Below are positions 51 through 11,972 of a DNA stretch of 11,972 nt, piece by piece. Under the pieces are notes generated by a model that was not told the origin of the DNA, did no database searches, and was given only the letters and a program-made list of their open reading frames with translations. Within the stretch, counting starts at the first letter, position 1, and each line of letters starts with the position of its first letter. Location of the stretch: assembly GCA_023425615.1 (NCBI GenBank), contig JAFACJ010000898.1:1-11972 (forward strand). The letters run 5' to 3'. This DNA comes from Actinomycetes bacterium. GTDB taxonomy: Bacteria; Actinomycetota; Actinomycetes; Streptosporangiales; Streptosporangiaceae. Both the position numbers and the translations under genes were made by a program.

Positions 51-118
51 GGAAAGTCGACATATAGCTACAATCGTCTAATTATAGGAAAATTATGATA
101 TGTACATTGTCGAGTGAC
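51..118. promoter_or_regulatory. AT-rich control island with degenerate operator
   Basis: A sharply AT-rich stretch in otherwise GC-rich DNA. Its first 16 bases (51-66, GGAAAGTCGACATATA) match 15 of 16 bases of the minus-strand sequence at 4593-4578, which contains the dctP operator. The left ten positions of the 16-bp motif TCGAYATWBWTATCGA are intact (57-66), but the right half is degraded. A perfect minus-strand TATAAT lies at 86-81; no convincing -35 was found 16-18 bp upstream. Since the only gene to its right is convergent, this most likely belongs to a gene reading leftward out of the window. That direction is an inference. Confidence 0.5.
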
Positions 119-2750: not shown

Positions 2751-3265
2751 GCCTCGTCCTTCACCGTGCCGGGGGAGGAGCCCTCGGCTCCGCCCGTCCG
2801 CAGCGTCCCGGCCGCCGAGCGGAGGAACAGCACGCCGAGCACCGCCATGGCGACGGGCGCCGCGAAGGTCAGCGGCCAGGTCGCCAGATCGCTGACCGGA
2901 TCGCCCTTGCCCGTGAGCCGCGCGTCCCAGGCGTAGTGCCAGGAGTGGTAGGCGATCAGGAGGGAGCCGGCTCCCGACAGCAGCCGGCCGAGGAGGCCGA
3001 CGATCCGCTGCCCGCCCGGGCGCAGCCGGGCGAAGAGCAGGTCGACGTGCAGATGGCGGTCCTTCGCCTGGGCCAGGACGTATCCCAGGAAGACGATGGC
3101 GGGCATGAACCAGTACTGCACCAGCGGGAGCGCCTGGATGATCGGCGCCCCGAAGAACTCGCGCATCACCGCGTTCATGACCACGACGACCGTGAGCCCG
3201 AGGATGATCACCGTGGCGATGAGGGAGCCGGTGCGGCCCGCCGCCGCTTCGCGCCCGTCGCTCAT
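2747..3265 (-). CDS. dctQ: TRAP transporter small permease (DctQ)
   Basis: A 172-residue membrane protein with four predicted hydrophobic segments (about residues 14-34, 47-66, 87-107 and 130-150). The DctQ hallmark RHLHVDLLFARL follows the second segment. It is the small membrane subunit that partners DctM. The chosen ATG at 3265 overlaps the dctP stop codon (ATGA). The open frame continues further upstream to 4024, but that part would lie antiparallel-frame inside dctP and reads as Arg-rich noise. The ribosome-binding site is weak, so expression probably relies on translational coupling from dctP. The stop overlaps the dctM start in the same way, giving three genes in a tightly packed dctPQM order. 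Confidence 0.9.
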   Translation of the reverse strand: MSDGREAAAGRTGSLIATVIILGLTVVVVMNAVMREFFGAPIIQALPLVQYWFMPAIVFLGYVLAQAKDRHLHVDLLFARLRPGGQRIVGLLGRLLSGAGSLLIAYHSWHYAWDARLTGKGDPVSDLATWPLTFAAPVAMAVLGVLFLRSAAGTLRTGGAEGSSPGTVKDEA

Positions 3266-4491
3266 GCCGGCCGGTCCGCGGCGAGGATCTCGCGGGTCAT
3301 CGCGTCGACGAACGGCTGGGGGTCGGGGTTCGTGGCGAGCCAGGCGGCGAACTCCGACCAGTCGGTGGCGGGGAATCCCAGCTCCTTGGCCTTGGCCGAC
3401 CAGACCCCGGCCTTCTCCCGCGCCGCCTTGGCGACGTCCGGGTCTGCCTGGCCCAGCAGCGACTCGTTCACTCCCGTGAACTTCGTGATCACCTCGTCGG
3501 AGGCGGGCTCGATGGAGCCGCCGGCCTTCCGCACGATGTCGAGGGCCTCGCCGTTGGCCTTCCAGCCGGAGCGGATGTTGGCGTTGAGGTAGACGTCCAG
3601 CCTGTCGTGGAACAGCTGCCTCGCGGCGAGCGGCAGCCTGCCCCACACGTCCTTGTTCATGACGAGCGTCGCGGCGTTGTAGCCGATCGGCGCGGTCGTC
3701 ACATAGTGCGCCTCCTCCAGGGTGCCGGACTTGGCGGAGACCCGCATCGAGGTGACCTCGCAGTCCACGACGCCGCGCTGGAGCGCCTCGAAGGACTCGG
3801 CGGTGGAGATGTTGGCGGCGTCGGCGCCGACGGTGGCGACCTGGGCCTTGACCTTCGCCTCGGAGCTGCGCACCACGGCGCCCTTGAAGTCGCCGGCGGT
3901 GCGCCGCGGCTTCGTGCACTGGATCGAGTGCGGGGCGCTGGCGTACCCGGCGACCAGCACTTCGAGCCCCTGCTTTTGGAACTCCTCGCCGAACGAGGGC
4001 AGCGAGGCCGGTACGGCCAGCCACCAGGCCTGGGCCTGGAGCATGCTGGCCACGGGGTCGTCGCTCAGCACGCCCGAGACGTTGTTGAGCTCGGTGAAGG
4101 TCGGGTAGAGCTTGGGGTTGTACGACGGGATCACCGTCGCCATGTCGAGCAGCCCGGTGGCCACGGCCTCGTCGATCGCGGGCCCGGTGGCGACCGCCTG
4201 CGCGTAGTTCACCGTGAAGGTGATCTTGCCGCCCGACCAGTCGGTGACGGCTGCCATGTACTCCTCGTCCTTGGCGTCGTCGGCCGAGCCCTTGCTGCCC
4301 AGCGTCTGGACGTTCAGGTTGACGGGGTCCATGCCGGACAGCGCCTGCTGGAACTCGGCCTTGGTCGCGGTGGCCGGCAGCCCCGTTCCGCCGGACTGGT
4401 CGCCGCCGGAGCCGGTCTCCGCGCAGGCGGTCAGCGCGAGAGCCGCGGCCAGCAGCAGGGAGGCGTGCGCTCTCAGGGACTTGGGTGTCAT
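3262..4491 (-). CDS. dctP: TRAP transporter substrate-binding lipoprotein (DctP)
   Basis: A 409-residue protein with a lipoprotein signal peptide: a Lys/Arg-containing start, a hydrophobic run and the lipobox LTAC with Cys23, then a Gly/Ser/Gln-rich linker. The DctP fold is recognised from DFKGAVVRSSEAK (201-213), where Arg208 is the likely carboxylate-binding arginine, and from ESFEALQRGVVDCE (232-245). It would sit on the outer face of the membrane and deliver an organic acid to DctQM. The start at 4491 has AAAGG 9 bases upstream. A longer frame to 4611 is rejected because it lacks a ribosome-binding site and would read through the operator palindrome. The ligand cannot be read from the sequence; the pairing with a CoA ligase suggests a carboxylic acid. 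Confidence 0.9.
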   Translation of the reverse strand: MTPKSLRAHASLLLAAALALTACAETGSGGDQSGGTGLPATATKAEFQQALSGMDPVNLNVQTLGSKGSADDAKDEEYMAAVTDWSGGKITFTVNYAQAVATGPAIDEAVATGLLDMATVIPSYNPKLYPTFTELNNVSGVLSDDPVASMLQAQAWWLAVPASLPSFGEEFQKQGLEVLVAGYASAPHSIQCTKPRRTAGDFKGAVVRSSEAKVKAQVATVGADAANISTAESFEALQRGVVDCEVTSMRVSAKSGTLEEAHYVTTAPIGYNAATLVMNKDVWGRLPLAARQLFHDRLDVYLNANIRSGWKANGEALDIVRKAGGSIEPASDEVITKFTGVNESLLGQADPDVAKAAREKAGVWSAKAKELGFPATDWSEFAAWLATNPDPQPFVDAMTREILAADRPA

Positions 4492-4570
4492 GCGTGTGAA
4501 CCTTTCGATCGGTCTCATCCGGAAGGGGGATGGGGGAGTGCCTCGAGGCGCCTCGGACGGATAAGACGGA

Positions 4571-4588
4571 GTCGATATATATATCGAC
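4571..4588. promoter_or_regulatory. Perfect 18-bp palindromic operator upstream of dctP
   Basis: GTCGATATATATATCGAC is a perfect 18-bp palindrome, 80 bp upstream of the dctP start and within an otherwise GC-rich region. Its inner 16 bases match the motif shared with 4868-4883, 10052-10067 and 10273-10288. Symmetry and length suit a dimeric helix-turn-helix regulator. The TATATA core may also contribute to a promoter. It probably controls the TRAP-LLM operon; whether by repression or activation is not visible. Confidence 0.75.
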
Positions 4589-4793
4589 TTTCCGGATGTT
4601 ACCCCCGTCACATGGTTACCGCCAAGGGGCGGGGGTGGATTCCTCTCCAGCCCCTCCGTCCCCCTGCGATCCGCTCTGTCACGGCGGCCTCTGGCCCGCT
4701 ATGCGCCAGTGCTCCTGACATGGGCATTGCGAACCGATGGCACCGCCGCGCGGAGTGGGGGTCGGGGATGGGGTGCCAAGTCTGGCGGAAGGT

Positions 4794-4814
4794 CCGGAGG
4801 GGAGGTGCCTCCGG
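4794..4814. repeat. GC-rich inverted repeat in divergent region
   Basis: The 7-bp arms CCGGAGG (4794-4800) and CCTCCGG (4808-4814) surround a 7-nt loop. No T-run follows. It lies between the two operators, upstream of the operator facing the ligase gene. It could be an insulating terminator for stray transcripts or chance. Nothing ties it to a specific function. Confidence 0.3.
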
Positions 4815-4864
4815 GGTCCGGCATTGCCAGGGTAGGTGGTAGAGGTTACAGTGACGAAGGCCAA

Positions 4865-4886
4865 ATTTCGATAACTATGTCGAAAT
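4865..4886. promoter_or_regulatory. Operator upstream of the acyl-CoA ligase gene
   Basis: The perfect 7-bp arms ATTTCGA (4865-4871) and TCGAAAT (4880-4886) flank an AT-rich centre. The core 4868-4883, read on the minus strand, is TCGACATAGTTATCGA, which differs from the intragenic copy at 10052-10067 at one base. It ends about 40 bp upstream of the ligase start, a position overlapping the expected promoter or transcription start. It probably regulates the ligase-to-GNAT operon through the same factor as the other copies. Confidence 0.75.
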
Positions 4887-4926
4887 ACGCACGGGGAAGC
4901 CGGGCGAGAAGCAAGGATGGTGGTCG

Positions 4927-6438
4927 ATGAGCGCGACGGTCAGTCACGCGCTGCGGTGGTGGGCGCGGCAGCGTCCGGCGGATCCCGCTCTGGCGGTGGG
5001 CGGCGCCTCGCTGACGTACCGCGAGCTGGAGAACTGGACCAGCCGGGTGGCCGAGACGCTCGCCGAGTCGGGCGTCGCCCCCGGTGAGCGGGTCGGCGTG
5101 ATCGGGCGCAACTCGCTGGAGTGGGCGGTCGCGGCACTGGCGGTGATCAAGGCGGGGGCGATCCTGCTGCCCCTCAACAACCGCTTCCGGGCGCGGGAGC
5201 TGGCGGGCGTCGTCGAGGACATGACACCGGCGCTGATCCTGGGCGACGAGGAGTTCGCTGACGCCGTGGCGGGGCTGCCCGGCGGGGTCGGCTTCGGCGC
5301 GCTGGCGGACCTGCGCCGGCTGCGCCAGGGCCCCGACGCCGACTTCCGGCGCGACCGCGACCCCTCAGAGCCGCTGATCATCATGCTGACCAGCGGCTCC
5401 ACCGGGCGTCCCAAGGGCGTCGTCTACACCGACGCCGGCATCCTCGGCGCCATCTTCGAGTGGATGCTGATGGAGGAGACGGTGCGCCCCGGCGTCCGGA
5501 TCTTCCTGCCGATCCCGTTCGCGTTCGCGCCGGGAACGGTATGGGGCCTGATGCGCGCGGTGACACTCGGCGGGCTGCTCGTCTTCCAGCCCAAGTTCGA
5601 CCCGGCGGAGGCGGTCCGCCTCCTACAGGAGTACGAGATCCAGATCTCGCTCGGCGGCCCGATCATCTACGAGCAGATGGCGCGCACGCCCGACTTCGAG
5701 ACCGCCCGGTTCCCGCACCTGAGGACCGCCATCACCGGCGGAGCCCGGGTCCCGGTGGAACTCCTCGCCAAGTGGATGGAGAAGGGGCTGCCGATCCGGC
5801 AGCTCTACGGGATGAGCGAGATCGGCGGCATCGCGACGGCCACCACGGCGGAGGACGCCTTCGCCCATCCCGACACCTGCGGCTACGGCGGCATCTTCAG
5901 CCAGGTCAAGGTGATCCGCGAGGACGGCACCGAGTGCGCGCCGGGCGAGCAGGGGAGCATCATCGCCCACGGCCCCGCCGCCATGATCGGCTACTGGAAC
6001 GACGCCGAGCAGACGGCGCGGGTGCTGAAGGACGGGTGGATCCACGGCGGTGACGCCGGATACATCACCGAGGACGGCCGCCTGAAGTTCGTGGACCGGA
6101 TCAAGGACATCATCATCTCCGGCGGCATCAACATCTCACCCGCCGAGATCGAGATGGTGATCGGCGCGATCGACGGGGTCGAGGAGGTGGTCGTCATCGC
6201 CGCCGCGGACGACAAGTACGGCGAGGTGCCCGCCGCCATCGTCCGTCTGCGCGAGGACGTGACGGCCGAGGACGTGCTGGCCGTCTGCCGCGAGCAGCTC
6301 GCCGACTTCAAGGTGCCGCGGCGGGTGATCGTGCGGAGTGAGCCGCTGCCCCGGCTGGCGCACGGCAAGATCGCCAAGGTCGAGGTGCGGCGTGAGTACG
6401 CATGGCTCGGCGGCGCCGCGGAAGAGGGACGGAGGTGA
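4927..6438 (+). CDS. Acyl-CoA synthetase, AMP-forming (ANL superfamily)
   Basis: A 503-residue adenylate-forming ligase that would activate a carboxylic acid to its CoA thioester using ATP. The diagnostic motifs are in order: the phosphate-binding loop LTSGSTGRPKG (154-164), YGMSE (294-298), the Asp376 region GGDAGY, the hinge DRIKD (390-394) followed by IIISGG, and the catalytic lysine in GKIAK (Lys481). Length and spacing are those of a complete enzyme. The ATG has AAGGA 9 bases upstream. It is the first gene of the rightward operon, behind the operator at 4865-4886, and its TGA overlaps the next start (GTGA). Relatives include fatty-acid, cyclohexanecarboxylate and steroid-acid ligases (FadD3-like). 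The substrate is unknown; import by the divergent TRAP system is a reasonable inference. Confidence 0.93.
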   Translation: MSATVSHALRWWARQRPADPALAVGGASLTYRELENWTSRVAETLAESGVAPGERVGVIGRNSLEWAVAALAVIKAGAILLPLNNRFRARELAGVVEDMTPALILGDEEFADAVAGLPGGVGFGALADLRRLRQGPDADFRRDRDPSEPLIIMLTSGSTGRPKGVVYTDAGILGAIFEWMLMEETVRPGVRIFLPIPFAFAPGTVWGLMRAVTLGGLLVFQPKFDPAEAVRLLQEYEIQISLGGPIIYEQMARTPDFETARFPHLRTAITGGARVPVELLAKWMEKGLPIRQLYGMSEIGGIATATTAEDAFAHPDTCGYGGIFSQVKVIREDGTECAPGEQGSIIAHGPAAMIGYWNDAEQTARVLKDGWIHGGDAGYITEDGRLKFVDRIKDIIISGGINISPAEIEMVIGAIDGVEEVVVIAAADDKYGEVPAAIVRLREDVTAEDVLAVCREQLADFKVPRRVIVRSEPLPRLAHGKIAKVEVRREYAWLGGAAEEGRR

Positions 6439-6887
6439 GCGCCCGCCCCGAGATCCCGGTCGCCCTTCCGATCGGGCCGCAGGAGCCGGTGGAGGTCCCG
6501 TTCTGGGAGGGGCTGCGGGCCGGTGAGCTGCGCATGCAGCACTGCGGCGGGTGCGACCTGTGGATCTGGGCGCCGTCCTGGATCTGCCCGTCCTGCCACG
6601 CCTTCGATCCGCCGTGGCGCGCGGTCGAGCCACGCGGGGTCGTCTACTCGTGGACCGAGACCTTCCACGCTTTTCCGGCTTCCCAGGAGTTCCGTGACGC
6701 CCTGCCGTATGTGACGGCGCTGGTGGAACTCCCGCACGCGGGCGGACGCCGCCTGCTGGGCATCGTGACGGGCGACGGGCCCGTGCGCGTCGGGACCCCG
6801 GTGACGGCCTGGGTGCAGCCCGCGGGCGACCTCACCGGAGGCTGGCCGGTCCTGCGCTGGACGACGGACACGGAGGTGAGGGCATGA
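6435..6887 (+). CDS. DUF35 zinc-ribbon/OB-fold protein
   Basis: A 150-residue DUF35 protein. The N-terminal helix is followed by a rubredoxin-like zinc ribbon with Cys37-x2-Cys40 and Cys51-x2-Cys54 (CGGC and CPSC), then an OB-fold half starting near residue 65 (RGVVYSWTET). In known systems such proteins bind a thiolase-like partner and help hold the acyl-CoA, as in the Ltp2-ChsH2 steroid side-chain aldolase and SCP-type thiolases. The GTG start at 6435 overlaps the ligase stop (GTGA) and has GAGG just upstream. An ATG at 6402 is possible but adds an Arg-rich tail inside the ligase gene. Its stop overlaps the thiolase-like start (ATGA), which fits formation of a complex with that protein. Confidence 0.88.
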   Translation: MSARPEIPVALPIGPQEPVEVPFWEGLRAGELRMQHCGGCDLWIWAPSWICPSCHAFDPPWRAVEPRGVVYSWTETFHAFPASQEFRDALPYVTALVELPHAGGRRLLGIVTGDGPVRVGTPVTAWVQPAGDLTGGWPVLRWTTDTEVRA

Positions 6888-8032
6888 AGCCGGGACTGCG
6901 CGGCGCCACGGCCGTGGCCGGCATCGGCGGTACCCGCTACTTCAAGCGCGGCACCGGCCAGGCGGAGAAGCGCATGCTCCTCCAAGCCGTGCTCGCCGCG
7001 TGCGCGGACGCCGGGCTCGACCCGCACGAGGTCGACGGCTTCGCGACCTACGGCGACGGCCATGACGAGGGGCCGGTCCTGGCGACCTCGCTGGGCGTCC
7101 GCGACTTCAGATTCTCGATCGTCTCCTCGGGAGGCGGCGGCGGGATCGCCGGGGCGATCGCGGCGGCCTCGGCGGCGATCGCCGCCGGTTTCGCCGAGCA
7201 CGTCATCGTCTACCGGGCGCTGGCACAGGCGGAGTCCGGACGGCAGGAGTTCGTCCGCTACCACTTCACCTCGACCTACCGGGCCCAGGGCATCGTCTCG
7301 GCGGTGCAGTCCGGCTCGCTGCGCACCCGGAGGATGCTCGACTTCGAGGGCGTCCCGGCGTCGGCGATCGAGGAGTTCACCAGGGCCGTCCACTTCCACG
7401 GATCGACGAATCCCGACGGGCTCGCCTTCGGCAGGACCCTCTCCAAGGAGCAGTACGCGGCCGGCCGTGTGATCGCCAGCCCGCAGGGGCTCTACGACTG
7501 CTCGCGGGAGGCGGACGGCGCCTTCGCCGTGCTGGTCACCTCCGCCGAGACGGCGCGGAGGCTCAGGCAGACCCCCGCCTACATCCTGGGCGTGGAGCAG
7601 AGCGGATACGGCGAGGACGCCGGCAACGCCGACCCGTACGCCACGTCCGGCCTCATCCCGGCGGCCCGCCGGCTGTGGCGGCGGACCGGCTTCGGACCCC
7701 GGGACGTCGACGTCGTCCAGGTCTATGAGAACACCGCGGGCCCGGCGGTCCAGGCGCTCATCGACCACGGGTTCACGACGTTCGCCGAGGCCGCCGGGTT
7801 CTTCACCTTCGACAACCTGACCGCACCGAAGGGCGGGCTGCCCGTCAACACCGCCGGCGGCAACATGGCGGCCGGCTTCGTGCACGGCATGGGCCTGCCG
7901 GTCGAGGCGGTACGGCAGATCCGGGGCACCTCGGTCAACCAGGTGCCGGACGCCCGGTTGTCACTGTTCATCGCGGGTCCCCAGGCGCAGCTGACGGGCT
8001 CGGTGCTCTTCGGCACCGAGGCGACGCTCTGA
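6884..8032 (+). CDS. Cys-less thiolase-like protein (Ltp/aldolase type)
   Basis: A 382-residue thiolase-superfamily protein of the lipid-transfer (SCP-x/Ltp) branch. Where thiolases carry the nucleophilic cysteine it reads IVSSGGGGGIAGA (Ser82 region), with no Cys. The second half is typical: YDCSREADGA, VYENTAGPAV with Tyr281, LPVNTAGGNMA, HGM with His334, and VEAVRQIRG. Ltp2-type retro-aldolases share this lack of the thiolytic cysteine and depend on a DUF35 partner, which is encoded directly upstream with a 4-bp overlap and GGAGG before the ATG. The likely job is carbon-carbon bond cleavage of a hydroxylated acyl-CoA (inference). A non-catalytic or condensing role is possible. One of the aldolase tyrosines expected near the HGM motif appears to be Phe here (GFVHGM); this needs alignment to confirm. 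Confidence 0.85.
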   Translation: MKPGLRGATAVAGIGGTRYFKRGTGQAEKRMLLQAVLAACADAGLDPHEVDGFATYGDGHDEGPVLATSLGVRDFRFSIVSSGGGGGIAGAIAAASAAIAAGFAEHVIVYRALAQAESGRQEFVRYHFTSTYRAQGIVSAVQSGSLRTRRMLDFEGVPASAIEEFTRAVHFHGSTNPDGLAFGRTLSKEQYAAGRVIASPQGLYDCSREADGAFAVLVTSAETARRLRQTPAYILGVEQSGYGEDAGNADPYATSGLIPAARRLWRRTGFGPRDVDVVQVYENTAGPAVQALIDHGFTTFAEAAGFFTFDNLTAPKGGLPVNTAGGNMAAGFVHGMGLPVEAVRQIRGTSVNQVPDARLSLFIAGPQAQLTGSVLFGTEATL

Positions 8033-8068
8033 CCGCGGACGACACGCCATCACCGAAAGGCCGACATC

Positions 8069-9277
8069 ATGACCGAGACGATCCAGCCGCGGTACGCCGA
8101 GGACGCGCCGGAGCGGCGCCAGGACCGCATCAGACGGGTGATCAGGCATCTCAAGGACGGCACGACCGACTCCTATGAGAGCCTGGCCACCATCCACGCC
8201 TCGGAGTACACCGACCACGAGACCGCCCGGCGGGAACGAGATCTGATCTTCGGCCGTGTGCCGTCGATCGTCGCGCACAGCAGCGAACTCGCCTCGCCCG
8301 GCGCCTTCGTCACCCTCCAGATGCCGCGCAACAAGCTCATCGTGGTGCGCCAGCGCGACGGGTCGGTCAAGGCGTTCGTCAACGCCTGCCGCCACCGCGG
8401 GGCGATGCTGGAGTCCGAGCCGTCGGGCAAGTGCCGGCTCTTCTCCTGCCCGTACCACCGCTGGTCCTACGACACCGACGGCTCGCTGCGCTCCATCACG
8501 CGCGCCGACACCTTCGGGCCGGAACTCGACAAGACGGAGCTGTCCCTGGCCGAGGTGCCCTGCCAGGAGCGGCACGGCTTCATCTGGGTGGTCGACGACG
8601 TGGCGGGCGAGATCGACGTCTCCTCCTGGCTCGGCCCGGAGATGGACGCGATCCTGTCGGGCTACGGGATCGAGGAGCACGTCTGCTTCCGGTCGGGTTC
8701 GTTCGAGGAGCCGGTGAACTGGAAGCTGATGCAGGACGCGTTCCTGGACGGCTACCACATCCAGTACGCCCACCCGAACACCGCGGGCAAGTACATCCAC
8801 ACCAACGTGTCGGTCATCGAGGACTTCGGACGGCACTGCCGCTGGATCAAGCCGCGCAAGAGCATCGACCGCTGGATCGATGAGGACCCGGCCGACCGGC
8901 CGATGGAGAAGTACCTGATCGAGACCCACTACCTGGGCCCGAACAGCACGCTGCTCAAGCAGCCCGACCACTTCGAGCTGCTCACGTTCCGGCCGCACCC
9001 CAAGGACCCGGGCCGGTCCTTCATGGAGATGCGCGTGATCCCGCCGCGCCCGGAGGCCACCGGCCTGGACGGCGCGCGGTGGACCGAGCTCTGGGAGAAG
9101 AACTGGGACATCCTGCTCCGGGTGCTGCACGCCGAGGACTTCCCGATCCTGCGGGGCACGCAGGCCGCCGTGGAGAGCGCCGACGTCGCCCCGATGACGC
9201 TCGGGCGCAACGAGGTCACCAACCACATCTTCCGCCGCGAGGTGGAGCGGATGCTCGCGGCGGAGGACCGGGGATGA
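8069..9277 (+). CDS. Rieske non-heme iron oxygenase, alpha subunit
   Basis: A 402-residue ring-hydroxylating-type oxygenase. The Rieske [2Fe-2S] centre is Cys107-x-His109 and Cys127-x2-His130 (CRH, then CPYH, 17 residues apart). The catalytic domain starts with NWKLMQDAFLDGYHIQYAH, giving the mononuclear iron ligands His230 and His235, with Asp357 in HAEDFPILRGTQ as the third. A GAAAGG ribosome-binding site lies 10 bases before the ATG, 36 bp after the thiolase-like gene. It would insert oxygen into the substrate or a CoA intermediate in the cytoplasm. No beta subunit, ferredoxin or reductase is in the window, so electrons must come from elsewhere. The class is firm; the reaction (mono- or dioxygenation, demethylation) cannot be told. 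Confidence 0.93.
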   Translation: MTETIQPRYAEDAPERRQDRIRRVIRHLKDGTTDSYESLATIHASEYTDHETARRERDLIFGRVPSIVAHSSELASPGAFVTLQMPRNKLIVVRQRDGSVKAFVNACRHRGAMLESEPSGKCRLFSCPYHRWSYDTDGSLRSITRADTFGPELDKTELSLAEVPCQERHGFIWVVDDVAGEIDVSSWLGPEMDAILSGYGIEEHVCFRSGSFEEPVNWKLMQDAFLDGYHIQYAHPNTAGKYIHTNVSVIEDFGRHCRWIKPRKSIDRWIDEDPADRPMEKYLIETHYLGPNSTLLKQPDHFELLTFRPHPKDPGRSFMEMRVIPPRPEATGLDGARWTELWEKNWDILLRVLHAEDFPILRGTQAAVESADVAPMTLGRNEVTNHIFRREVERMLAAEDRG

Positions 9278-10218
9278 CACCGCCGCCCGGGCCGTACCTC
9301 CTCATCGAGTACGAGTGGTTCCCCGAGGTCGTGGGCGGGCTGCGCGAGACGCTGCGGGAGTTCGCCCGCAGGGCCGCGGCGCACGACGCGGAGGCGGGGT
9401 TCACCGCGCTCGGCCGGCTGGACGGTCCACCCGGTCCCGTGGACGGGCCCGCCCGGTACCTGGTGGTCCGGGGGATCGGCGACGGCGATCGCGCGGCCCC
9501 CGGTGAGATCGTCGCCCTCCTGGCCATCACCGACGTCGATGATCTCGGTGTCGGCGAGGTCTCCCTGGTGGTCGCCCCGGAACACCGAGCGCGGGGCGTC
9601 GCCACGCTGCTCATCGAGAGGCTGAGCGCCGAGGCGGCCGGTGACGACCGGTTCGGGACCGGGCTCACCGGCATCCGGGCCGTGGCGGACGGCGCGCACC
9701 CCGCGGCGGGACGGATCGCCGCCCGGTTCGGGTTCGGCCTCGTCGCCGAGACCTGGACCCTGCTGCGCATGGTCCGCGGTCATGCCGCGGGCCCGGAGGC
9801 ATCGTGGGACGGGGAGATCGAGGTGGTGGAGAGGCGGACCGCGGCGGAGTTGCGCGCGGGCGTTCCCGTGCCGGTGCCGGGAGAGGTGACCGAAGGCGTG
9901 AGGACCCTGTCCGAGCGCGTCTACCGGCCGCACGGCGGCGATGCGGGCGCGACGGTCACGATCCGGCACGGCGCCGATGGCGCGGGACGCCCGGACCAGC
10001 TGGCGAGGCTCGGTTTCGGCGGCGGCGCGGCGTTGCTCTCCGGCGAGATTATCGACATACTTATCGAAAAGGCGGTCGGCGATCTGCGCGCGGCCGGCGC
10101 GGGAGCGGTGCTCGCGGAGGTCGACCCCCGGGAGCAGGCCGTGGTTCGTGCCTGTCGGCGCAGGTATTTCCAGCACGACCAGTCGAACCTGGTCTACGCC
10201 GTACCGCTGGCTCGCTGA
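9274..10218 (+). CDS. Tandem GNAT acetyltransferase, MshD-like
   Basis: A 314-residue protein with a well-formed N-terminal GNAT domain: VSLVVAPEHRARGVATLL (97-113) is motif A with the acetyl-CoA-binding RxRGxA. This is followed by AAGRIAARFGFGLVAET. A second, eroded GNAT half ends the protein (LIEKAVGDLRAAGAGAVLAE, then RRRYFQHDQSNLVYAV). Length and tandem layout resemble mycothiol synthase MshD, but the role here is unknown; a link to mycothiol or to acyl-CoA chemistry is speculation. The ATG overlaps the Rieske stop (ATGA) and has GGAGG 7 bases upstream, so the two are translated together. Codons 259-265 are unusually AT-rich because a copy of the operator motif lies there (10052-10067). 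Confidence 0.75.
   Translation: MTPPPGPYLLIEYEWFPEVVGGLRETLREFARRAAAHDAEAGFTALGRLDGPPGPVDGPARYLVVRGIGDGDRAAPGEIVALLAITDVDDLGVGEVSLVVAPEHRARGVATLLIERLSAEAAGDDRFGTGLTGIRAVADGAHPAAGRIAARFGFGLVAETWTLLRMVRGHAAGPEASWDGEIEVVERRTAAELRAGVPVPVPGEVTEGVRTLSERVYRPHGGDAGATVTIRHGADGAGRPDQLARLGFGGGAALLSGEIIDILIEKAVGDLRAAGAGAVLAEVDPREQAVVRACRRRYFQHDQSNLVYAVPLAR
10052..10067. promoter_or_regulatory. Operator copy inside the GNAT gene
   Basis: TCGACATACTTATCGA lies within the coding sequence, about 150 bp before the GNAT stop. It matches the motif of the three intergenic copies and, on the minus strand reading, differs from the ligase copy by one base. It forces the codons ATT, ATC, GAC, ATA, CTT, ATC, GAA in a gene that otherwise prefers G/C-ending codons. 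Its centre is 221 bp from the centre of the copy at 10273-10288, close to 21 helical turns. This would suit a loop between the two sites. Function is inferred. Confidence 0.6.
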
Positions 10219-10272
10219 CCTTCCGACGTCTTTTTGCCGGTCATCCTCTCTGGGCCCTTTGTGCTCAAAGAA

Positions 10273-10288
10273 TCGACATTCATATCGA
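10273..10288. promoter_or_regulatory. Operator abutting the CoA-transferase ribosome-binding site
   Basis: TCGACATTCATATCGA in the 82-bp gap after the GNAT gene. It is followed immediately by AAAGGAG, the ribosome-binding site of the CoA-transferase. Together with the intragenic copy the shared block extends to ATCGACAT...TATCGAAAAGG. Its place means a bound regulator would cover the start of the transcript or block passing polymerase. It suggests the CoA-transferase unit has its own control although it follows the operon closely. No clear -35/-10 pair was seen. Confidence 0.7.
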
Positions 10289-10300
10289 AAAGGAGTGGTC

Positions 10301-11479
10301 GTGGCTGCACACCGTGGGCCGCTGGACGGCCTGCTGGTCCTGGACTTCAGCCAGATCGTCGCGGGCCCCCTCGCCGCGATGGTCCTCGGCGACCTCGGCG
10401 CCAGGGTCGTGAAGATCGAGCCTCCCTCCGGTGACGCCTCGCGCCAGCTCGGCAGCCGCGAGTCCACCGGATACCAGGTCATGTTCGAGTCCTTCAACCG
10501 GAACAAGGAGTCGATCGCGCTGGACCTGCGAAGCCAGGAGGGACGGCTGCGGGCACTGGAGCTGGCCGACGAGGCGGACGTGCTCATCGAGTCGTCGCGG
10601 GTCGGCGTCATGGACCGGCTCGGGCTCGGGGCGCGGGCGGTCAGGGGCCGCAATCCCGGACTGGTCTACGTCTCGATCAACGCCTACGGGGAGAGCGGAC
10701 CCAACGCCGCGCGCGGCGGCGTCGACGTGGTCGTCCAGGCCGAGACCGGCTGGATGTCGATCACCGGCGAGCCCGACGGCCCGCCCACCAAGCTCGGCTC
10801 GGTGCCGATCGACGCCGCGACCGGCCACGTCGCCGCGCAGGGCGCCCTCGCGGCGCTGTTCGCCCGCACGCGGACCGGCCTCGGCGACGTCGTCAGGGTC
10901 TCGCTCTACGACGTCGCGTGCAGCCTGCACACGCACGACTTCACCGACTTCCTCAGCCTGGGCCGTGTCGCCGGGCGCACCGGCAACTTCCCCGCGGCCA
11001 CCACCCCCTCGGGCGTGTACGCCACGGCGGACGGCACCATCGTGCTCGCGGCCTACATGCCCCACCACTGGAAGACGGCGGTCGAGATCCTCGACGACGA
11101 CCGGCTGCGCGACGACCCGCGGTTCCAGAGCATGAAGGACCGCATCCGCAACCGCGACGCGCTGTTGGAGATCCTCCGGGAAGTCCTTCTGCGGCGCACG
11201 ACCGCGCAATGGCGTGCGGACTTCGAGGCCGCGCGGATCACCTGCGGCGTCGTCCGCGACACCGACCAGGTCGTCGCCTCCGACCAGTTCGAGGCCGCGC
11301 GGCTGGCGGTCGAGCTGGAGGACGGGAACGGACGCCGGATCCGCACCATCCGCACCCCGGCCCGCTTCGACTCCTTCACCCGGGATCCGGGCAGACCGGC
11401 ACCCGCCCTCGACGCCGACCGCGAGACCGTCCTCGGCGACCTCGGCCGCGGCGCCTCCACCCCGGCGGGCCGGCCGTGA
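10301..11479 (+). CDS. CaiB/BaiF family III CoA-transferase
   Basis: A 392-residue protein with the family's N-terminal signature: LDGLLVLDFSQIVAGPLAA, then LGDLGARVVKIEPPSGDASR (about 8-48). Asp171 in VPIDAATGH sits where the catalytic aspartate of formyl-CoA transferase lies (Asp169), followed by LAALFARTRTGLGDVVRVSL. It would move CoA from a donor thioester to a carboxylic acid without ATP. The GTG at 10301 is 5 bases after AGGAG; an in-frame GTG at 10295 overlaps that site and is less likely. The frame stays open upstream to 9941, but that portion overlaps the GNAT gene and is discarded. The operator at 10273-10288 directly precedes it. Its TGA overlaps the next start (GTGA). Substrate and donor are unknown; the upstream ligase could make the donor thioester. 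Confidence 0.92.
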   Translation: MAAHRGPLDGLLVLDFSQIVAGPLAAMVLGDLGARVVKIEPPSGDASRQLGSRESTGYQVMFESFNRNKESIALDLRSQEGRLRALELADEADVLIESSRVGVMDRLGLGARAVRGRNPGLVYVSINAYGESGPNAARGGVDVVVQAETGWMSITGEPDGPPTKLGSVPIDAATGHVAAQGALAALFARTRTGLGDVVRVSLYDVACSLHTHDFTDFLSLGRVAGRTGNFPAATTPSGVYATADGTIVLAAYMPHHWKTAVEILDDDRLRDDPRFQSMKDRIRNRDALLEILREVLLRRTTAQWRADFEAARITCGVVRDTDQVVASDQFEAARLAVELEDGNGRRIRTIRTPARFDSFTRDPGRPAPALDADRETVLGDLGRGASTPAGRP

Positions 11480-11972
11480 CGCCGGGCGCCGCCATCGCCG
11501 GTCTCGGGCTCACCGACGTCGGCAAGGTCTACGGCCGGTCGGCGGCGGACTTCGCACGCGAGGCGGTCCGGCTGGCCGTGGAGGACGCGGGGCTGAGCCT
11601 CGCCGACGTCGACGGGCTGCTCGTCAGCTCGGGCAAGTCGGGAGGGGTGGACCTCGGTATCGCCGAGGCACTCGGAATGACGGACCTGTCCCTGCTGATG
11701 ACCGTCAACGCGTTCGGATCGTCGGCCGGCGCCATGGTCGAGCTCGCCGCGTCGGCGATCGGGGCGGGCAGCGCGCACACGGTGGTCTGCGTCTTCGCCG
11801 ACGCGCCGCTGCGCGAAGGCGTCCGCGGCTCCGACGTTTACAAGCGGCCGGTGGCCAAGGGGTTCGGCGGCCATCTCACGGCCAGCGGCATCACCAGCAC
11901 GACCGCCTACTACGCGCTCGCCGCCCGGCGGCACATGGAGACATACGGGACCACGTCCGAGCAGCTCGGCGC
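11476..11972 (+). CDS. Thiolase-like protein (partial, 3' end outside window)
   Basis: Starts at a GTG overlapping the CoA-transferase stop (GTGA) and stays open to the window edge, giving the first 165 residues. The N-terminus AAIAGLGLTDVGKVYGRSA, then AVEDAGLSLADVDGLLVSSG, is typical of the thiolase/SCP-x (Ltp) branch. VNAFGSSAGAMVELAASAIGAG occupies the nucleophile region and again has no cysteine. It is a distant paralogue of the protein at 6884-8032, clearly different in sequence. Its ribosome-binding site is weak, so coupling to the CoA-transferase is likely. By analogy a second DUF35 gene may follow outside the window; that is a prediction. Activity as an aldolase, a thiolase or a structural partner cannot be decided from the fragment. 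Confidence 0.85.
   Translation, partial: MTPGAAIAGLGLTDVGKVYGRSAADFAREAVRLAVEDAGLSLADVDGLLVSSGKSGGVDLGIAEALGMTDLSLLMTVNAFGSSAGAMVELAASAIGAGSAHTVVCVFADAPLREGVRGSDVYKRPVAKGFGGHLTASGITSTTAYYALAARRHMETYGTTSEQLG

What the first reader, a model, noticed from the sequence alone, without database searches (positions are those of the whole stretch)
4571..10288. A shared 16-bp palindromic operator defines an undescribed local regulon
Four near-identical sites fit TCGAYATWBWTATCGA: 4572-4587, 4868-4883 (minus-strand reading), 10052-10067 and 10273-10288. Three lie in the control regions of the TRAP-LLM operon, the ligase operon and the CoA-transferase unit. Their AT content stands out against very GC-rich DNA and the 4571-4588 copy is a perfect 18-bp palindrome. 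I do not recognise it as the site of the actinobacterial catabolic regulators KstR or KstR2. It implies one dimeric regulator coordinating uptake and breakdown; that regulator is not in the window.
Basis: partly seen in the sequence, partly recalled or inferred. Interest (0 to 1): 0.8.

Follow-up and report, generated by a model that had tools for sequence, protein, structure and literature searches.

The report
Shared TetR-type operator in catabolic cluster
Four copies of a 16-base mirror-image DNA site stand at an uptake-and-breakdown gene cluster, and the same kind of site stands beside an undescribed group of TetR-type regulator genes in other actinobacteria, which suggests a simple, testable on/off switch for the whole cluster.

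Summary
Four sites (4572, 4868, 10052, 10273) fit the motif; 0 of 200 shuffles reach the count. Three lie 12-80 bp before start codons; the fourth lies inside a GNAT-like gene, 205 bp before the CoA-transferase operator.

An exact copy of the 4868 site lies 48 bp upstream of a TetR gene in Rhodococcus jostii. TetR genes of that clade have the palindrome TCGAYA-N4-TRTCGA in their fetched locus in 10 of 13 cases (7 within 300 bp of the gene's 5' end), against 0 of 57 loci of more distant TetRs. In four of five clade genomes counted, sites crowd around that gene, in CoA-thioester catabolic clusters. A matrix built without the window scores the four sites 22-33 bits; the next best place scores 0.2. 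One such cluster holds a thiolase 59% identical to the window's second thiolase, another an exact copy of the 10273 site.

Best reading: operators of a TetR repressor encoded outside the window, coordinating TRAP uptake and CoA-dependent breakdown. The window's genome is not held, so its regulator is inferred. New member of a known kind; nothing tested at the bench.

The parts
4570..4589 (.). Operator O1, perfect 20-bp palindrome (core 4572-4587), 80 bp upstream of the TRAP operon (dctP)
   Evidence: matrix score 22.2 bits
4868..4883 (.). Operator O2, 43 bp upstream of the CoA-ligase operon; identical (minus-strand reading) to the site upstream of the TetR gene in R. jostii (L081:1501-1516)
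   Evidence: matrix score 32.8 bits
10052..10067 (.). Operator O3, inside the GNAT-like gene, 205 bp before O4
   Evidence: matrix score 29.1 bits
10273..10288 (.). Operator O4, 12 bp upstream of the CoA-transferase GTG; identical to a site in a TetR-clade cluster (L210:4928)
   Evidence: matrix score 29.7 bits
167..1240 (-). Luciferase-like monooxygenase (LLM), last gene seen of the TRAP operon
   Evidence: Pfam PF00296
1266..2750 (-). TRAP transporter large permease DctM
   Evidence: Pfam PF06808
2747..3265 (-). TRAP transporter small permease DctQ (start codon inferred)
   Evidence: Pfam PF04290; start read from the translation
3262..4491 (-). TRAP solute-binding protein DctP, first gene of the operon under O1
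   Evidence: Pfam PF03480, translation
4927..6438 (+). AMP-forming acyl-CoA ligase, first gene of the operon under O2
   Evidence: Pfam PF00501/PF13193
6435..6887 (+). ChsH2-like zinc-ribbon/OB-fold protein (start uncertain: 6402 or 6435)
   Evidence: Pfam PF01796/PF12172
6884..8032 (+). SCP-x/lipid-transfer type thiolase
   Evidence: Pfam PF22691; NCBIfam NF005892 below its cut-off
8069..9277 (+). Rieske ring-hydroxylating oxygenase alpha subunit; 90% to Actinocorallia aurantiaca
9274..10218 (+). GNAT-like gene holding O3; 81% to A. aurantiaca
   Evidence: Acetyltransf_1 match of the longer frame 9079-10218; no Pfam match at 1e-5 for this start
10301..11479 (+). Family III (CaiB-type) CoA-transferase under O4
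   Evidence: Pfam PF02515, translation
11476..11972 (+). Thiolase, cut by the window end; 59% to the thiolase in the operon beside the TetR gene of G578
   Evidence: Thiolase_N below its cut-off (23.2 against 26.4)

Best explanation
The four sites are operators of one TetR-family repressor, encoded outside the window. It belongs to a small actinobacterial clade marked by an N-terminal RTRGGW-PAGTAA-RR type arm and an EthR_C-like ligand domain. Without inducer a dimer sits on the 16-bp palindrome TCGAYA-N4-TRTCGA at the TRAP-LLM promoter (O1), the ligase-OB-fold-thiolase-Rieske-GNAT promoter (O2) and the CoA-transferase-thiolase promoter (O4, with O3 as an auxiliary site inside the upstream gene) and blocks transcription. 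A substrate or its CoA thioester binds the C-terminal domain, the dimer leaves, and uptake and breakdown genes switch on together. Shown: the sites, their placement, and the link of the palindrome with the TetR clade and with CoA-thioester gene clusters in other genomes. Inferred: presence of such a TetR in the window's genome, repression rather than activation, the inducer, and the role of O3.
For: Shuffle test 0 of 200. The R. jostii copy of O2 is 48 bp upstream of a TetR gene. Exact palindrome in 10 of 13 fetched TetR-clade loci (12 of 13 with one mismatch allowed) against 0 of 57 distinct loci of more distant TetRs (8 of 57 with one mismatch), Fisher p = 7e-10 for exact sites. In 7 of the 13 an exact site lies within 300 bp before the 5' end of the TetR match, in 3 more a one-mismatch site does. 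Genome-wide, 4 of 11, 4 of 13, 4 of 13 and 3 of 9 exact places fall in stretches of 5-17 kb at the TetR gene, and 1 of 4 in the fifth genome; the reversed control pattern is found at 0 or 1 place per clade genome (binomial p 3e-8 to 3e-5, and 0.03 for the fifth, with spans set after seeing the data). G865 has 7 exact sites in about 28 kb at its clade TetR, one identical to O4 (its whole genome was not counted). These clusters hold acyl-CoA ligases, acyl-CoA dehydrogenases, enoyl-CoA hydratases, thiolases, CaiB CoA-transferases and transporters. The window's second thiolase is 59% identical to the one in the operon beside the TetR of G578. A matrix from 20 non-window sites gives the window sites 22.2-32.8 bits, next best 0.2, and at most 14.5 in 200 random windows; one place in 1.58 Mb of related catabolic loci reaches 22 bits.
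Against: The window's genome is not held, so the TetR itself is unseen. One clade member (G401, 57% to the R. jostii TetR) has no site at its own gene, though one lies about 8.5 kb away. In three clade loci the exact site is not at the TetR's 5' end: L160 has it 744 bp upstream, L162 and L180 on the 3' side. The matrix is not fully independent: its sites were picked with a pattern that I had widened from the window motif, so its core positions favour the window by construction. Window half sites have C at position 5 in 3 of 8 readings, clade sites in 37 of 40, and O1 is the weakest. In the family searched first, 44 of 341 genomes carry an exact TCGAYATNNNTATCGA and only one of those (G344) was seen to have it at a clade TetR, so single copies elsewhere look like background. 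The clade clusters share few close homologues with the window, and none of the stretches read has its Rieske gene at E 1e-8.
Confidence: 0.8

Rival explanations
1. The sites are operators of a dimeric regulator of another family (MarR, GntR, IclR, PadR) that happens to use a similar palindrome.
For: The regulator of the window's genome has not been seen. Window sites are richer in T at position 5 than the TetR-clade sites.
Against: The O2 and O4 sequences occur letter for letter in TetR-clade clusters, and the palindrome follows the TetR clade in 10 of 13 loci against 0 of 57.
Confidence: 0.13
2. Chance: AT-rich stretches in GC-rich DNA that look alike without being regulatory.
For: Isolated exact copies do occur in other places in other genomes.
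Against: 0 of 200 shuffles reach the count; the matrix made without the window singles out exactly these four places; three stand 12-80 bp before start codons of three transcription units.
Confidence: 0.01
3. The TetR acts as an activator, or the local regulon has more than one regulator, with O3 and O4 serving a different protein from O1 and O2.
For: Some TetR proteins activate: Ms4022 of M. smegmatis is reported as an activator (PMC4895335, passages read). O3 lies inside a gene.
Against: All four sites fit one matrix. O4 and O2 lie 12 and 43 bp before start codons, as one would expect for a repressor; this is position only.
Confidence: 0.06

Closest known systems
TetR-family catabolic repressors KstR and KstR2 of actinobacteria
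   Same: TetR dimers on short palindromes before many CoA-dependent catabolic operons, including their own genes (recalled; KstR/KstR2 papers seen only as search listings with abstract starts).
   Different: The operator sequence differs (KstR and KstR2 consensus recalled, not looked up here); the R. jostii clade TetR matches the NCBIfam KstR model only weakly (32.5 bits against a cut-off of 280).
EthR (mycobacterial TetR repressor)
   Same: Best solved-structure relative of the R. jostii TetR (residues 33-243 of 259, E 1.5e-10); one clade member passes the Pfam EthR_C cut-off (28.9 against 27). TCGAYA half sites occur upstream of 8 of the 9 best EthR_C loci, a weak hint of related DNA reading.
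   Different: The R. jostii member is below that cut-off (23.1). Of 17 EthR_C loci examined in seven mycobacterial genomes, none has the exact 16-bp palindrome; three have a one-mismatch copy well downstream. A survey states that the EthR motif is larger and in multiple copies (PMC4482099, passages read).
BkaR and other mycobacterial TetR regulators of acyl-CoA gene clusters
   Same: TetR repressor that regulates nearby genes of branched-chain keto-acid metabolism (PMC3920632, abstract start in listing).
   Different: Not compared in sequence here; no shared operator was tested.

Membership tests
TetR regulon (TRGGW clade described here) | Palindrome TCGAYA-N4-TRTCGA at several transcription units of one cluster | tested here: met
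   four sites at three transcription units; matrix scores 22-33 bits
TetR regulon (TRGGW clade described here) | Target genes of CoA-thioester catabolism and uptake | tested here: met
   ligase, thiolases, CaiB, TRAP in the window; comparable clusters elsewhere
TetR regulon (TRGGW clade described here) | TetR gene of the clade in the same genome | not testable with these tools
   no genome held; the protein record identical to the window's GNAT-like gene lists a longest contig of 12,103 bases
KstR / KstR2 regulon | Regulator matches the KstR model above its cut-off | tested here: not met
   tested on the R. jostii TetR, not on the window's unseen regulator: 32.5 bits against 280
KstR / KstR2 regulon | KstR or KstR2 operator consensus | not tested
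   the consensus is recalled only; the four sites do not look like it by eye
EthR | EthR_C ligand domain | tested here: inconclusive
   above the cut-off in the G609 member, below it in the R. jostii member
EthR | Same operator architecture at EthR genes | tested here: not met
   0 of 17 EthR_C loci examined with the exact palindrome; 24 matches were listed, 20 loci fetched

The most novel reading that the evidence does not exclude
A patchily distributed, probably horizontally moving TetR clade with a conserved basic TRGGW arm acts as a portable switch: the regulator and its 16-bp operator have been attached to quite different CoA-dependent catabolic clusters (TRAP/LLM/Rieske here; P450, hydantoinase-like, acyl-CoA dehydrogenase and CoA-transferase sets elsewhere), and an operator is even kept inside the coding sequence of an upstream gene. 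The arm would read the A/T flanks of the palindrome.
Probability: 0.35. Interest if true: 0.55.

Novelty: new member of a known kind. Interest (0 to 1): 0.48.

Why it matters
It turns an unnamed motif into a concrete, testable pair: a TetR clade and its operator. That lets one list likely target genes of uncharacterised actinobacterial catabolic clusters from sequence alone, and gives candidate operator-repressor pairs for sensing organic acids or their CoA thioesters.

Tried and rejected
Own-genome scan: not possible, the genome is not held. Orthologous loci by the Rieske protein: the 80 best of 105 genome-contig loci are a 51-66% paralogue group with no exact copy of TCGAYATNNNTATCGA; the Rieske protein found only 56-64% matches in 4 of 341 genomes at E 1e-150 and nothing at E 1e-180 in 59 and 28 genomes (without a positive control). 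Plasmid records: no near match of 8,973 bases, and all matches under 60% in protein mode for the Rieske and the TetR. Isolated motif copies in the family of G001 (44 of 341 genomes): mostly background; among the 30 loci fetched from that call (L082-L111) no frame matched the clade profile at E 1e-8, although G344, from the unfetched part, has sites at its TetR. EthR as the family: operator architecture not met; 3 of the 20 loci fetched (L228-L230) were not examined. Promoter scan: one sigma-70-like match upstream of the ligase (4824-4852), none near the CoA-transferase; not used. AT-rich stretch 56-116 with two half sites: not a full site (matrix 0.2 bits at best). Clade border: L123 (234 bits) and L181 (226 bits) were counted outside; counted inside, exact sites are 10 of 15 against 0 of 55. 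L179 and L183 were dropped as repeats of L120 and L131. An early script used a wrong frame for the GNAT gene; repeated correctly. Structure prediction was not run: a TetR model would be expected to match other TetRs.

Literature: eight library searches and passages of six papers (and, for the survey, 39 again; five papers in all: PMC4482099, PMC6016246, PMC8634040, PMC4895335, PMC3742746) showed no description of this palindrome as a TetR operator. One search listed 20 of 40 papers. Open-licence papers only, so this is weak evidence that it is undescribed. To be plain about the count: five papers were opened, by passages only.
Full report
WHAT IS THERE. The window carries three transcription units read from sequence: a leftward TRAP transporter operon (dctP, dctQ, dctM, then a luciferase-like monooxygenase), a rightward operon (CoA ligase, ChsH2-like OB-fold protein, SCP-x type thiolase, Rieske oxygenase, GNAT-like gene) and a rightward CoA-transferase plus thiolase. 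Several genes overlap by an ATGA or GTGA type junction (read), which fits operons. The closest named Rieske (90%) and GNAT (81%) proteins are from Actinocorallia aurantiaca, each reported with a longest contig of 138,096 bases, so the neighbourhood is probably kept there; that DNA could not be read.

THE SITES. All four sites are confirmed at 4572, 4868, 10052 and 10273 and are far beyond chance. O1 is a perfect 20-bp palindrome. O1, O2 and O4 lie 80, 43 and 12 bp before start codons. O3 lies within the GNAT-like gene; its codons end in A or T in 4 of 9 cases against 31 of 287 in the rest of the frame (p = 0.0135), a modest sign of selection on the DNA. The A. aurantiaca protein keeps residues compatible with the site (EIDIVIE), while three more distant relatives do not; a fourth aligned relative is too short there (five of the seven relatives found were aligned). 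This is compatible with a kept site, not proof of one.

WHICH REGULATOR. The pattern TCGAYATNNNTATCGA was looked for in four genomes reached through loci. The only hit, in R. jostii, is identical to O2 and lies 48 bp upstream of a TetR gene; a second palindrome of the same build lies before the neighbouring MFS transporter gene. This widened the motif to TCGAYA-N4-TRTCGA. The TetR was then sought in 331 genomes of that family, 338 of the family of Actinomadura physcomitrii, and as a profile in 394 genomes of the class; each search scored 7-8 candidates per genome. Thirteen clade loci were read (L118-L122, L158-L164, L180). Ten hold the exact palindrome, two more with one mismatch, and one (L120, Gordonia hirsuta by its contig length) none. 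By position, 7 of 13 have an exact site within 300 bp before the 5' end of the TetR match (L164 touching it), 3 more a one-mismatch site there; L160 has its exact site 744 bp upstream, L162 only on the 3' side. Of 57 distinct loci of more distant TetRs, none has the exact palindrome and 8 have a one-mismatch copy. Fisher p for exact sites is 7e-10. The clade border was set after looking; moving the two nearest outsiders inside gives 10 of 15 against 0 of 55. Motif-bearing TetRs share an N-terminal arm (RTRGGW-PAGTAA-RR or a variant) that nearly all the others lack; exceptions are L164, which has sites but not the TRGG part, L120, which has the arm but no site, and L167, which has TRGG but no site.

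THE REGULON ELSEWHERE. Whole-genome counts of the exact palindrome are low (3 to 13 places per genome in eight genomes; the reversed control pattern at 0 places in six of them, 1 in G609 and 2 in G519). In four of the five clade genomes tested they crowd at the TetR: 4 of 11, 4 of 13, 4 of 13 and 3 of 9 places; in the fifth, 1 of 4 lies on the same contig. These clusters encode acyl-CoA ligases, acyl-CoA dehydrogenases, enoyl-CoA hydratases, thiolases, CaiB CoA-transferases and MFS carriers, and in one case a luciferase-like monooxygenase with hydantoinase-like genes. In G609 a TRAP system related to that of the window (DctM 45%, DctP 36%) stands nearby, but no site with up to one mismatch was found before it. 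Predicted divergent gene pairs carry two sites about 90 bp apart in R. jostii and G609, as the window has two between its divergent TRAP and ligase operons. In G865 seven exact sites lie in about 28 kb, including one identical to O4 and one 90 bp before the predicted start of a CaiB gene. Other clade stretches are poorer: in L170-L178 (six genomes) 1-2 sites each with at most one mismatch were seen where any were.

CROSS-CHECK. A matrix made from 20 non-window sites (read on both strands) scores O2 32.8, O4 29.7, O3 29.1 and O1 22.2 bits; the next best place in the window scores 0.2 and the best of 200 Markov-1 random windows 14.5. In 1.58 Mb of related catabolic loci (L001-L080) one place reaches 22 bits. 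The matrix sites were chosen by a pattern widened from the window motif, so the core positions are not independent of it; the flanks and the centre are.

MECHANISM. Most likely a TetR dimer represses uptake and breakdown together and is released by a substrate or CoA thioester. Repression, inducer and the contribution of O3 are inference. The ligand domain is EthR-like, but the operator arrangement is not that of the EthR_C genes examined. I therefore file it as a new TetR regulon, related to but not a member of the EthR or KstR systems.

LIMITS. The window's genome is not held and its source contig seems to be about 12.1 kb, so its own TetR is unseen. Orthologous loci were not found in the genomes at hand. 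I have no binding data. The literature search covered open-licence papers only.

Noticed in passing
window 56-116: An AT-rich stretch downstream of the LLM gene holds two facing half sites (TCGACAT and ATTGTCGA) too far apart for one operator; it may be a promoter of a leftward gene outside the window.
   Followed up: partly
window 8069-9277: Among the 120 listed Rieske relatives, those at 70-90% identity are 12, with three named bacteria (Actinocorallia aurantiaca, Rhodococcus olei, Gordonia sp. DT30) and otherwise unnamed records, which hints at horizontal movement.
   Followed up: partly
L209-L210 (G865): Seven exact palindromes over about 28 kb with P450, aldehyde and alcohol dehydrogenases, ligases, acyl-CoA dehydrogenases, amidohydrolase and CaiB: a second, different regulon of the same TetR clade.
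   Followed up: partly
L011:10059 and L072:10059: Two of the 80 loci of the Rieske paralogue group carry motif-like places about 60 bp into the Rieske match (21.9 and 22.2 bits); probably coding coincidence.
   Followed up: no
L120 / L155-L156 (G401): A clade TetR with the full TRGGW arm but no palindrome at its own gene; the only exact site on that contig is about 8.5 kb away.
   Followed up: no
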